A stretch of 5,756 bases of DNA from an uncultured Lachnospiraceae bacterium. Lineage in GTDB: Bacteria; Bacillota_A; Clostridia; TANB77; CAG-508. The first letter of the stretch is position 1, and every line of letters starts with the position of its first letter. The stretch spans positions 1-5,756 of the forward strand of contig CAMUZC010000093.1 of NCBI GenBank assembly GCA_947165105.1, in the 5' to 3' direction. The position numbers and the translations under genes are program-made. The notes under the pieces were generated by a model. The model searched no databases. It was not told the DNA's origin and saw only the letters and a list, made by a program, of their open reading frames with translations. Of the stretch, positions 8 to 1,591 are shown one piece after another.

Positions 8-45
8 TGGAGTGTAGCTCAATTGGTAGAGCATTAGAATTATAA
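8..45 (+). pseudogene. tRNA 5'-half-like sequence, no 3' half found
   Basis: The sequence begins like a tRNA. A seven-base would-be acceptor strand (8-14) is followed by TA at 15-16. A perfect D-arm comes next: GCTC at 17-20 paired with GAGC at 29-32, around an AATTGGTA loop. A33, a TTAGA strand and a seven-base ATTATAA loop follow; read as an anticodon loop this would give TAT (Ile, AUA). The fold then fails: bases 46-50 do not pair with TTAGA, and no T-arm or matching acceptor strand appears in the next 100 bases. I read it as a decayed or truncated tRNA, or a tRNA-derived piece of the following structured leader. The D-arm match is clear; the rest is inference. Confidence 0.4.
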
Positions 46-55
46 ACCGCATAGT

Positions 56-140
56 TTAGGCGCACACAGCAATTATTTTAATAATAGATGATAACAAATA
101 TATACAAATTAGTTAATTAAAATTTATTTATTAGGCGCCG
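56..140 (+). ncRNA. CAGCAAT-type structured spacer/leader element, copy 1
   Basis: This is the first of three related elements in the window. TTAGGCGC at 56-63 supplies a stem strand GGCGC (59-63) that pairs with GCGCC at 135-139. CACAGCAAT follows the first strand at 65-73, the same nine bases as in copy 3. The 70-base interior is almost pure A+T and has no strong internal helix. The closing strand is followed by GTTTAT (142-147) and then the ribosome binding site of the gene at 163, so the element forms that gene's 5' leader. The family resemblance is seen directly; a role in RNA processing or translational control is inference. It is the weakest of the three copies. Confidence 0.4.
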
Positions 141-162
141 CGTTTATTTAAAGGAGAATTGC

Positions 163-486: not shown

Positions 487-680
487 ACAAAATTGAAAAA
501 ATTATTTCCGCATATGAATGTGGAAACAAACAATTCCCCGGAGAACGTTGCAAAACTTGCCCTTATGGATATGGAAAATGGGATGATAGTGGGGATAATA
601 GCTTCTGGTGGTGTGATACGGACCGAATTGAAGAAGATGCCATAAATCTTCTTAAAGTAATTTATGCGGTATTAGCGTAG
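483..680 (+). CDS. Small Cys-rich phage protein ending inside tRNA-Ser
   Basis: This is a 65-aa protein with cysteines at 13, 23, 26 and 44, arranged as C...CxxCPYGYG...C, followed by an acidic DAINLL helix. This resembles the short C-x(n)-CxxCPY-x(n)-C-x(n)-DA-x-x-LL proteins very common in phages of gut Bacillota, which probably bind a metal; no function is known to me. It starts in an ATGA overlap with the preceding gene and has no strong Shine-Dalgarno of its own, so it probably depends on coupling. The stop TAG (678-680) lies in the D-loop of tRNA-Ser(GCT), so the last 15 bases (A-V-L-A-stop) are also the tRNA acceptor and D-arm 5' strand. Cleavage at the tRNA 5' end would remove the stop codon from the message. 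Confidence 0.75.
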   Translation: MNKIEKIISAYECGNKQFPGERCKTCPYGYGKWDDSGDNSFWWCDTDRIEEDAINLLKVIYAVLA

Positions 681-755
681 TGGTCGAACGCGGGGTCTTG
701 CTAAGTCCTGTCGGCCTTTAGTGGCCCGAAGGTTCGAATCCTTCATACCGCGCCA
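666..755 (+). tRNA. tRNA-Ser(GCT)
   Basis: This is a class II tRNA reading AGC/AGT. The acceptor GCGGTAT (666-672) pairs with ATACCGC (745-751), followed by discriminator G752 and an encoded CCA (753-755). The D-stem is GCG 675-677 with CGC 689-691. The anticodon loop is TTGCTAA (698-704) with GCT at 700-702. Its stem, 693-697 with 705-709, has one T-T mismatch. A long variable arm contains GGCC (713-716) with GGCC (723-726). The T-arm is GAAGG, loop TTCGAAT, CCTTC. At 90 nt it has normal tRNA-Ser length. AGT codons are used in the large downstream gene, so a codon-supply role fits. Confidence 0.93.
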
Positions 756-756
756 A

Positions 757-916
757 TTGTGGACTGTTGGCTTAGAAGCAGCCATTCAGCTAAGGAGTTC
801 TTAATTTCTCTATCGGTGCAAAATGTATCATAGGCTACATTTGTTATAATGCCCTACGAGTATGAAGTGCCGATAGACAATAGAAATATGAGATTTGGCG
901 TAATAGCACACCGCAA
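757..916 (+). ncRNA. 23S rRNA GTPase-associated-centre (L11-binding) mimic domain
   Basis: Bases 765-785, containing TTGGCTTAGAAGCAGCC, are identical over 21 nt to helix 43 of E. coli 23S rRNA (U1058-U1078); A774 equals A1067. Bases 898-907 (GCGTAATAGC) equal the helix 44 loop G1091-C1100; A902 equals A1095. The junction is rebuilt with different sequence. TTGTGG (757-762) pairs with CCGCAA (911-916) as helix 42. C764-G789 replaces the A1057-U1081 pair at the base of helix 43. T767 and A796 stand where U1060 and A1088 form their tertiary pair. A 99-nt arm (798-896) interrupts the 5' strand of helix 44. From known GAC biology, this fold binds L11 and contacts EF-G and thiostrepton. A decoy, docking or L11-capture role is inference. 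The domain starts two bases after the tRNA-Ser CCA, so it is probably released by tRNA processing. Confidence 0.8.
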
Positions 917-1097
917 ATATTGAGCTGGTCAGAGTAGCGTGCAGAAAGCTCAAGAGAATAAACACGGGGTTACTACATAGCTCATCTGCCATGTGTAGAA
1001 GGAGCGGAAAATACGTTGGGAGCATAAGCAGTATATAGTCCTAGTGCCGCAGATGGAAACGGCGAATAAACCTAGGTGGGATACACAACGTATTTAT
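917..1097 (+). ncRNA. 3' structured domain of the large tRNA-cluster RNA
   Basis: No open reading frame is credible here, and several long helices are visible. TTGAGCT (920-926) pairs with AGCTCAA (947-953). CTACA (973-977) pairs with TGTAG (994-998). A ten-base-pair helix joins AAATACGTTG (1009-1018) to CAACGTATTT (1086-1095). Inside it, CCTAG (1040-1044) pairs with CTAGG (1072-1076) and encloses GCCG (1046-1049) with CGGC (1060-1063), looped by a purine-rich CAGATGGAAA. GGACT at 761-765 could alternatively pair with AGTCC at 1037-1041 and tie this domain to the GAC-like one. With 757-916 it makes an RNA of about 340 nt. It may be one transcript or a member of a known giant phage RNA class; I could not recognise GOLLD or ROOL from memory. 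Confidence 0.65.
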
Positions 1098-1098
1098 T

Positions 1099-1267
1099 AA
1101 TGCGGTGGCGAAATAGGTAAACGCTGCGTCGTGAGACTACGGCAGTCACTTAATTCATGGCCGAGATTGAAAAAGATCACTGACAGCCACTAATAGTAAG
1201 GAATATTAGTAAAGATGAAGAGCGAAAAAACGTATGTCATGTAAGGTGCAAATCCTTACCCGCATTA
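1099..1267 (+). tRNA. tRNA-Leu(GAG)-like RNA with an extra ~98-nt variable domain
   Basis: The outer parts are tRNA-like. The acceptor AATGCGG (1099-1105) pairs perfectly with CCGCATT (1260-1266). TG and a class II D-arm follow (GCG 1108-1110 with CGC 1122-1124 and an AAATAGGTAAA loop). The T-arm is GTAAGG (1241-1246), loop TGCAAAT, CCTTAC (1254-1259). The loop GTGAGAC (1131-1137) puts T at position 33 and GAG (Leu) at 1133-1135, in keeping with the Leu-like D-arm. Oddities: the anticodon stem is poor; the T-stem has six pairs, so acceptor plus T-arm is 13 bp; the T-loop has TGC instead of TTC; no CCA is encoded. About 98 nt replace the variable arm, holding helices 1141-1148/1181-1188 (one A-A mismatch) and 1189-1195/1204-1210. 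It may be a repurposed tRNA scaffold rather than a decoding tRNA. Confidence 0.6.
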
Positions 1268-1272
1268 TTTAT

Positions 1273-1346
1273 GTGTCATTGGTGTAATGGTAACATAGTG
1301 GCCTTCCACGCCGCGGTTGTGGGTTCGAGTCCCATATGACACTCCA
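1273..1346 (+). tRNA. tRNA-Gly(TCC)
   Basis: The cloverleaf is complete. The acceptor GTGTCAT (1273-1279) pairs with ATGACAC (1336-1342), then discriminator T1343 and an encoded CCA (1344-1346). The D-stem is GTGT 1282-1285 with ACAT 1293-1296. The anticodon stem is GTGGC 1298-1302 with GCCGC 1310-1314, around loop CTTCCAC with TCC at 1305-1307. The T-loop is TTCGAGT. It reads GGA (and GGG), and GGA is a frequent Gly codon in the long gene downstream, so codon supply is plausible. It starts six bases after the discriminator of the tRNA-Leu-like RNA. Confidence 0.95.
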
Positions 1347-1352
1347 AGATGC

Positions 1353-1425
1353 TTAGACAGTATCAGCAATTACACATCTCTTGCGTTGAGCCTTCGGAGT
1401 CATCCTCCGATTGTATTCTGTCTAG
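1353..1425 (+). ncRNA. CAGCAAT-type structured spacer element, copy 2
   Basis: This element fills the gap between tRNA-Gly and tRNA-Gln. TTAGACAG (1353-1360) pairs with CTGTCTAG (1418-1425) over eight pairs, one of them T-G. Inside, CAGCAAT (1364-1370) contributes GCAAT (1366-1370), which pairs with ATTGT (1410-1414). Within that, TCGGAG (1394-1399) pairs with CTCCGA (1405-1410; A1410 can serve only one of the two helices), and a small CTC/GAG hairpin (1378-1380 with 1388-1390) precedes it. The layout parallels copies 1 and 3. The stable closed fold between two tRNA genes suggests a processed small RNA or a structured processing spacer; the function is unknown. Confidence 0.5.
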
Positions 1426-1430
1426 TATAT

Positions 1431-1501
1431 AGCCCGGTAGTCTAGCGGCAGGACACGTGGCTTTGACCCACGGCGTGTTGGTTCAACCCCAACCCGGGCT
1501 G
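1431..1501 (+). tRNA. tRNA-Gln(TTG)
   Basis: The acceptor AGCCCGG (1431-1437) pairs with CCGGGCT (1494-1500), and the discriminator is G1501. The D-stem is GTC 1440-1442 with GAC 1452-1454. The anticodon stem is CGTGG 1456-1460 with CCACG 1468-1472, around loop CTTTGAC with TTG at 1463-1465. The T-arm is GTTGG 1477-1481 with CCAAC 1489-1493 and loop TTCAACC. CCA is not encoded, unlike in the Ser and Gly genes, so the host enzyme must add it. It reads CAA, which is by far the commoner Gln codon in the 952-aa gene. The Gln identity rests on the anticodon. Confidence 0.93.
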
Positions 1502-1507
1502 CTTATT

Positions 1508-1591
1508 TTAGACATTCACAGCAATAATAATAAGCAATGCCATTTTACTTAATTTAAATCAAAAGATTATTGCAACTTTTGTAGTGTCTAG
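1508..1591 (+). ncRNA. CAGCAAT-type structured spacer/leader element, copy 3
   Basis: TTAGACA (1508-1514) pairs with TGTCTAG (1585-1591). After CACAGCAAT (1517-1525), a second helix joins GCAATAAT (1521-1528) to ATTATTGC (1566-1573), a perfect eight pairs. The loop (1529-1565) is A+T-rich and repeats AGCAAT at 1533-1538. Only five bases separate the closing strand from the Shine-Dalgarno AGGAG (1597-1601) of the next gene, so the element is also the 5' leader of that gene. The GTTTAT after the closing strand matches copy 1. It could stabilise the message, be a processing site at the end of the tRNA cluster, or control translation; none of these is shown. Confidence 0.5.

What the first reader, a model, noticed from the sequence alone, without database searches (positions are those of the whole stretch)
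757..916. Phage RNA that rebuilds the 23S rRNA GTPase-associated centre inside a tRNA cluster
Seen: 21 bases (765-785) identical to E. coli 23S helix 43, then the helix 44 loop (898-907) in the same order, closed by a helix 42 equivalent (757-762/911-916) whose sequence differs from rRNA but still pairs. The base pair at the foot of helix 43 is also replaced by another pair (C764-G789). Keeping the contact loops (A1067 and A1095 equivalents) while changing the scaffold helices points to selection for the fold. Known: this three-way junction binds L11 and is the site used by EF-G, thiostrepton and, through L11, RelA activation. Inferred: the RNA could titrate L11, mimic the factor-binding centre, affect the stringent response, or recruit L11 to a phage RNA particle.
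Basis: partly seen in the sequence, partly recalled or inferred. Interest (0 to 1): 0.92.

Follow-up and report, generated by a model that had tools for sequence, protein, structure and literature searches.

The report
Phage RNA mimicking ribosomal GTPase centre
A large family of phage RNAs that appears undescribed, often tucked between tRNA genes, carries a free-standing copy of the part of bacterial ribosomal RNA that holds protein L11, which suggests that these viruses use RNA mimicry to capture a ribosomal protein.

Summary
Window 757-916 carries the elements of the 23S rRNA GTPase-associated centre (GAC); it starts one base after the CCA end of tRNA-Ser, and close relatives conserve the sequence to 977. 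Seeds from the helix 44 side alone gave 93 distinct hits; 88 have H43-like sequence upstream, against 1 of 93 shuffled. In a motif-anchored alignment of 117 cores, 15 column pairs covary above a phylogeny-aware null; all 15 are GAC pairs or pairs closing a new insertion, and they include tertiary pair 1082-1086. I located 156 distinct RNAs. Thirteen named isolate phages carry it, with no RNA annotated there. The window and 20 sampled loci give no Rfam 15 match (other than tRNA) at the site, and nine paper-search listings show no report. Of 141 loci, 74 have a tRNA within 500 nt, all 74 with the nearest tRNA on the same strand. Unlike rRNA, helix 42 is rewritten, a 29-369 nt domain interrupts the junction, and 1101 is changed. 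Best reading: a trans-acting rRNA-domain mimic that binds host L11. The fold is very well supported; expression, L11 binding and effect are inferred.

The parts
666..755 (+). tRNA-Ser (GCU) with encoded CCA at 753-755; its 3' end lies one base before the RNA
   Evidence: ARAGORN, Rfam
757..977 (+). conserved phage RNA: GAC core 757-916 plus a 3' extension seen only in the window's close relatives
757..762 (+). helix 42 equivalent, 5' strand
   Evidence: pairs with 911-916; this helix covaries in the family
764..766 (+). 1057-1059 equivalent (base of helix 43), pairs with 787-789
   Evidence: 1057-1081 and 1058-1080 covary; 1059-1079 is not among the pairs above the null
767..784 (+). helix 43 stem-loop, 1060-1077; A774 is A1067
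   Evidence: composition in H44-seeded copies
787..789 (+). 1079-1081 equivalent (base of helix 43); U786 is an extra base
790..798 (+). junction 1082-1090 (CUAAGGAGU): C790-G794 is tertiary pair 1082-1086; A796 is A1088
   Evidence: 1082-1086 covaries
799..897 (+). inserted domain absent from 23S rRNA, closed by helix 799-802/890-893, ending in UUUG
   Evidence: closing helix covaries; 29-369 nt in the family
898..910 (+). helix 44 stem-loop and 3' joint, 1091-1103; A902 is A1095; A908 is the derived A1101
911..916 (+). helix 42 equivalent, 3' strand
917..977 (+). 3' extension: hairpin GAGCU...AGCUC, then AAACACGGGGUUACUACA
   Evidence: the terminal 18-mer occurs in 12 held sequences (window and 11 loci, some near-duplicates), each with the GAC upstream

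Best explanation
This is a phage-encoded, trans-acting non-coding RNA that rebuilds the L11-binding domain of 23S rRNA. Shown by comparison: the fold, its selection as RNA, its independence from 23S genes, and its presence in phages and often in tRNA arrays. Inferred: it is transcribed and, in arrays, cut out by tRNA processing enzymes. Inferred: it folds as the 58-nt GAC RNA does and binds host uL11. Inferred: when abundant during infection it holds newly made L11 away from ribosomes, or uses L11 as an assembly partner; ribosomes short of L11 would answer poorly to RelA activation and related stress signals while still translating (effect of L11 loss recalled). The insertion would stabilise the RNA or carry a second, phage-specific function.
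For: Co-occurrence of H43 and H44 without using H43 as seed. 15 of 15 pairs above the null are predicted ones, including tertiary pair 1082-1086. Predicted pairs form in 1783 of 1989 cells, against 0.39-0.56 of cells when slid by 1-3 columns. U1060 is kept in 136 of 136 cores. A1095 is kept in 76 of 77 H43-seeded copies with an H44 match. In 34 distinct bacterial 23S copies 1082-1086 is U-A in 33 and U/C in 1, so the C-G and A-U phage copies are not fresh copying from that sample. Context: 74 of 141 loci have a tRNA within 500 nt, all 74 nearest ones on the same strand (random positions in the same loci: 819 of 2566 within 500 nt); 54 of 156 RNAs lie within about 30 nt of a tRNA end. Open frames over the RNA are short. 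No L11 N-domain match (PF03946) in 13 of 13 isolate phages, while 14 of 14 control genomes ring, so any L11 bound would be the host's. L11 binds and stabilises the isolated GAC RNA (passages of PMC10161774).
Against: No binding, expression or knockout data. 1101 is A in 134 and G in 2 of 136 cores, 1070 is G in 28, 1096 is G in 31, none of which occurs in 34 bacterial 23S copies; their effect on L11 affinity is unknown. XaC1 has G at 1095. The insertion at 1090/1091 might obstruct L11. L11 is about as abundant as ribosomes (recalled), so titration needs a very abundant RNA. Thermodynamic folding recovers H42 in 109, H43 in 73 and the closing helix in 13 of 136 whole RNAs.
Confidence: 0.5

Rival explanations
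1. L11 (or the bare fold) is only a structural cofactor: the RNA is a phage regulatory or scaffold RNA whose insertion domain does the work, and the GAC is a docking module.
For: The insertion is closed by a covarying helix and holds lineage-level modules (12 and 28 of 136, shuffle means 0.0 and 0.5).
Against: The insertion varies from 29 to 369 nt and neither module is general, whereas the GAC core is shared.
Confidence: 0.2
2. Decoy for something that attacks or senses the GAC of the ribosome, such as a host immune effector, a ribosome-targeting toxin or a thiopeptide antibiotic.
For: Exposed loops are largely retained (A1095 in 76 of 77). Phage tRNA arrays are often read as counter-measures against tRNA-cleaving defences (recalled), and the RNA often sits in such arrays.
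Against: Position 1067, near which thiostrepton binds (passage of PMC4409310), is G or C in 15 of 69 copies not found by the H43 seed. No GAC-targeting defence is known to me.
Confidence: 0.15
3. Mimic that binds translation factors, RelA or the tRNA elbow directly rather than L11.
For: The contact loops of H43 and H44 are largely kept.
Against: Of six conserved 23S words searched in the 156 loci only one 10-base SRL word in L233 was found; helix 42, which carries the stalk site (recalled), is rewritten.
Confidence: 0.1
4. Remnant or recent capture of a host 23S fragment, or contamination by real 23S genes.
For: Some collection hits are real 23S: L097 and L103, Paenibacillus phage Pd_22F (L127).
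Against: The counted copies share derived letters and an insertion and covary, and 13 lie in named isolate phage genomes among phage genes or tRNAs.
Confidence: 0.01

Closest known systems
23S rRNA GTPase-associated centre (58-nt L11-binding domain, helices 42-44)
   Same: Register, H43 and H44 loops, 1057-1059/1079-1081 stem, 1060 and 1088, pair 1082-1086.
   Different: Free-standing phage RNA; H42 rewritten and often longer; 29-369 nt insertion between 1090 and 1091; U1101 replaced by A; no other 23S parts found.
GOLLD and ROOL RNAs (Rfam; PMC12286853, passages seen)
   Same: Phage and prophage RNAs of unknown function, often near tRNA islands. GOLLD is said there to bind ribosomes in pull-downs.
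   Different: No match in the window (E up to 5) or at the RNA in 20 loci (gathering). The window copy has 221 nt, against 659 nt for ROOL env-120 and over 800 nt for many GOLLD. The word 23S does not occur in that paper's main text. Contig L046 carries a ROOL beside this RNA.
Ribosomal-protein mRNA leaders that imitate rRNA binding sites (recalled)
   Same: rRNA mimicry to bind a ribosomal protein.
   Different: Those are cis-acting host leaders of ribosomal-protein genes; 13 of 13 isolate phages with this RNA show no L11 gene.
OLE RNA (PMC12286853, passages seen)
   Same: Large RNA proposed to sequester a ribosomal protein (RpsU).
   Different: Different RNA; nothing in the passages seen describes a copied rRNA domain.

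Membership tests
23S rRNA GTPase-associated centre | helix 42 closing the three-way junction | tested here: met
   1047-1054/1105-1112 covary; 1055-1104 paired in 115 of 117
23S rRNA GTPase-associated centre | helix 43 loop with A1067 | tested here: met
   A774 in the window; in 90 H44-seeded copies 75 A, 13 G, 2 C; bacterial 23S 31 A, 3 G of 34
23S rRNA GTPase-associated centre | helix 44 loop with A1095 | tested here: met
   A902; 76 of 77 H43-seeded copies with an H44 match; XaC1 has G
23S rRNA GTPase-associated centre | tertiary pair 1082-1086 | tested here: met
   U-A 59, C-G 41, A-U 26, other 10 of 136; covariation above the null
23S rRNA GTPase-associated centre | U1060 and A1088 (long-range pair, recalled) | tested here: met
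   U1060 in 136 of 136; A1088 was fixed by the search pattern, so it is not independent
23S rRNA GTPase-associated centre | uninterrupted junction between helices 43 and 44 | tested here: not met
   29-369 nt insertion; 99 nt in the window
23S rRNA GTPase-associated centre | U1101 | tested here: not met
   A in 134, G in 2 of 136; U in 34 of 34 bacterial 23S
23S rRNA GTPase-associated centre | embedded in a 23S rRNA gene | tested here: not met
   window copy flanked by tRNAs with no rRNA match; isolate copies among phage genes or tRNAs
23S rRNA GTPase-associated centre | binds L11 | not testable with these tools
   needs a binding assay
GOLLD / ROOL | match to the Rfam model | tested here: not met
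   no match in the window (E up to 5) or at the RNA in 20 loci (gathering)
GOLLD / ROOL | phage RNA near tRNA islands | tested here: met
   74 of 141 loci with a tRNA within 500 nt
Ribosomal-protein leader | lies upstream of the gene of the protein it binds | tested here: not met
   no L11 N-domain match in 13 isolate phages; the window copy lies between tRNAs

The most novel reading that the evidence does not exclude
A class of viral RNAs that imitate a working part of the ribosome: phages of many hosts deploy a free-standing, evolving copy of the L11-binding centre that captures host L11 and so retunes ribosomes and silences RelA-dependent and other L11-dependent stress signalling during infection.
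Probability: 0.35. Interest if true: 0.97.

Novelty: categorically new. Interest (0 to 1): 0.93.

Why it matters
Viral mimicry of tRNA is well known (recalled), but I know of no virus-borne, independently evolving copy of a functional centre of ribosomal RNA, and the nine paper-search listings named in the report show none. It would mark a host ribosomal protein as an RNA-targeted hub of infection and give a natural L11 trap for studying the stringent response. It also supplies many natural GAC variants outside the ribosome, including C-G and A-U forms of tertiary pair 1082-1086 absent from 34 bacterial 23S copies. And it explains stretches left without an RNA annotation in 13 named isolate phages.

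Tried and rejected
Rejected: chance; 23S contamination or remnant for the counted family; GOLLD, ROOL or another Rfam family; coding sequence (median longest open frame 246 nt over RNA midpoints against 537 at random flank positions; 13 of 141 RNAs still lie in a frame of 450 nt or more, against 372 of 621 flank points). Other 23S pieces: 7 weak insertion hits against 3 for shuffled insertions. A terminator directly after the RNA is not general (5 of 154, control 7 of 770). Energy-based folding alone is a poor guide. blastn of window 640-1520 against isolate phages found nothing; only short conserved cores do. Two low-score isolate hits (Illi-2, S-CAM7) overlap annotated genes and were not counted. 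The notebook's first entry gives 997 for the RNA end; 977 is right.

Rows dropped before counts: 11 of the first 120 loci before (L097, L103 real 23S; L010, L026, L044, L045, L057, L061, L101, L108, L120 judged by eye to lack the conserved context, not tested further). One search dropped one hit with short upstream sequence. One search dropped 44 duplicates, 4 without a junction match, 2 at edges and 2 real-23S rows, and ignored candidates with under 14 of 18 H43 bases; its patterns fix most junction and H44 letters, so only positions outside them are informative. One search dropped rows over 85% identical (136 to 117). One search set aside 30 printed 23S rows whose spacing is one base longer; one search counts both spacings (34 distinct, 11 of them longer).

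Full report
What is there. The window is a phage tRNA region: tRNA-Ser 666-755, tRNA-Gly 1273-1346, tRNA-Gln 1431-1502, with a phage YunG-like protein among the neighbours (PF24591, 30.4 bits against a cut-off of 27). The RNA begins at 757, one base after the encoded CCA of tRNA-Ser. In E. coli 23S numbering (recalled) 757-762/911-916 is helix 42, 764-766/787-789 is 1057-1059/1079-1081, 767-784 is helix 43 (A774 = A1067), C790-G794 is 1082-1086, A796 is A1088, 799-897 is an insertion, 898-907 is helix 44 (A902 = A1095). Close relatives conserve the sequence to 977. No Rfam 15 family matches 757-977 up to E 5.

Is it more than chance? Two were real 23S and nine were set aside by eye; the other 109 and the window gave 110 sequences, 85 non-redundant. 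An H44 match of at least 11 of 15 follows within 600 nt in 77 of these 85. Of the 8 misses, L047, L094, L098 and L083 have only 144, 61, 14 and 2 nt of downstream sequence; L113 has H44 further on; L001, L081 and L099 remain without one. The less biased test goes the other way: seeds from the H44 side only (89 and 29 stretches) gave 93 distinct hits with enough upstream sequence, and 88 had at least 14 of 18 H43 bases upstream, against 1 of 93 for shuffled sequence. 69 of the 90 with at least 13 of 18 were not among the H43-seeded loci.

Selection on the fold. From the loci then held, 136 distinct cores were anchored on sequence motifs, not on pairing. After an 85% identity filter 117 remained. 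I compared G-test covariation with 40 alignments simulated on the inferred tree (my own script in the manner of R-scape, not R-scape itself). 15 column pairs had E below 0.05 and all are expected: 1047-1054 with 1105-1112, 1057-1081, 1058-1080, 1082-1086, and the four pairs closing the insertion. 1055-1104 is nearly constant (115 of 117 paired, E about 1.5). Predicted pairs form in 1783 of 1989 cells, and in 0.39 to 0.56 of cells when slid by 1-3 columns. The 1082-1086 pair has 59 U-A, 41 C-G, 26 A-U and 10 other of 136, whereas 34 distinct bacterial 23S copies, from genomes reached, have U-A in 33 and U/C in 1. So the phage RNAs hold this tertiary contact through exchanges absent from that host sample.

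What has changed. 1101 is A in 134 of 136 cores but U in 34 of 34 bacterial copies, and the 5' side of helix 44 reads UUUG in nearly all cores. Every counted core has an insertion of 29-369 nt; candidates with 8 or fewer inserted bases were classed as real 23S (2 rows), so its presence is partly by construction. The shared changes suggest one origin. In 69 copies found without the H43 seed, 1067 is A in 54, G in 13 and C in 2. G1067 also occurs in 3 of 34 bacterial 23S copies (printed rows), so it may follow the host. XaC1 has G at 1095, and the FeN3W plasmid copy differs at 1096-1097. Insertions share modules only within lineages: two word-pair modules occur in 12 and 28 of 136, shuffle means 0.0 and 0.5.

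Who carries it. 156 distinct RNAs were located: the window, 68 H43-seeded and 66 further H44-seeded viral loci, 12 from GTDB genomes and 9 from isolate phages. Thirteen named isolate phages show both H43 and H44: Cronobacter GAP32, Pectobacterium CBB, Serratia BF, Erwinia pEa_SNUABM_12 and Kaldavass, Xanthomonas XaC1, XbC2 and XacN1, Pseudomonas pf16, UNO-G1W1, Milchi and Astolliot, Aeromonas 4_4572 (fetched). Of the four not among the 156, BF and pEa_SNUABM_12 repeat a counted core (L181), CBB matches GAP32 at the compared ends, and XaC1 fails the motif. None of the 13 feature tables lists an RNA there; Kaldavass, Milchi and UNO-G1W1 have short hypothetical ORFs across it. Five more pEa_SNUABM records hit were not fetched. 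Other records (short Staphylococcus, Listeria, Escherichia and other records, Salmonella contigs) were not examined and not counted; several are labelled 23S. Paenibacillus Pd_22F is real 23S. A 909-kb Pseudomonas plasmid also carries the RNA. In GTDB genome contigs 13 of 22 pattern hits have an H43 match of at least 14 of 18 upstream.

Context. Of 141 loci of at least 3 kb, 74 have a tRNA within 500 nt, the nearest one on the same strand in all 74, against 819 of 2566 random positions in the same loci with a tRNA within 500 nt; 54 of 156 RNAs lie within about 30 nt of a tRNA end. Others, such as the GAP32 and BF groups, are intergenic without an adjacent tRNA. The longest open frame over the RNA midpoint has a median of 246 nt, against 537 at random flank positions. 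Directly following terminators are rare (5 of 154).

Mechanism. The retained nucleotides are those of the GAC fold, the binding site of L11 (passages of PMC4409310 and PMC10161774). The stalk-bearing helix is rewritten, and of six 23S words searched only one 10-base sarcin-ricin word in L233 was found, so a complete factor site is unlikely. The L11 N-domain profile found nothing in 13 of 13 isolate phages and rang in 14 of 14 control genomes. I therefore favour capture of host L11. That L11 loss blunts RelA activation is recalled, not shown here. Shown: fold, family, distribution, context. Inferred: expression, processing, L11 binding, effect on infection.

Against. The thermodynamic fold of the window is ordinary (z -1.24; -1.06 for 754-1102); MFE folding finds H42 in 109, H43 in 73 and the closing helix in 13 of 136 whole RNAs, the closing helix in 74 of 136 insertions folded alone. 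The case rests on comparison. The insertion and the changes at 1070, 1096 and 1101 could weaken L11 binding.

Literature. Nine searches of the held library gave listings of titles and abstract starts, some capped (10 of 11, 14 of 15 and 20 of 42 shown), and two gave no paper; none of those shown reports a phage GAC mimic. Passages of three papers were read, no paper in full. Most subscription papers are not held, so absence is not proof.

Noticed in passing
window 1099-1266: Looks like a tRNA-Leu (D-arm, T-arm and acceptor ends present) with a long non-canonical middle; not called by ARAGORN or Rfam. Several close relatives show the same ends with different middles.
   Followed up: no
window 8-160: tRNA-like start (GGAGTGTAGCTCAATTGGTAGAGC...) without a recognisable 3' half nearby; not called.
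   Followed up: no
window 67-73, 1364-1370, 1519-1525: The word CAGCAAT recurs in three spacers beside the tRNAs; it also occurs three times inside the long gene (3224, 4811, 5213), so this may be chance.
   Followed up: partly
L046 1503-2100: A ROOL RNA lies in the same tRNA array as a GAC-like RNA, with a tRNA-Lys at 2179-2253 between them.
   Followed up: partly
L018 853-1296: A viral contig with the GAC-like RNA also carries a predicted tmRNA.
   Followed up: no
23S rows L307, L309-L317: Some 23S copies from the phylum of the Hymenobacter genome have G instead of A at 1067 (3 of 34 distinct rows), a possible host match for phage copies with G1067.
   Followed up: partly
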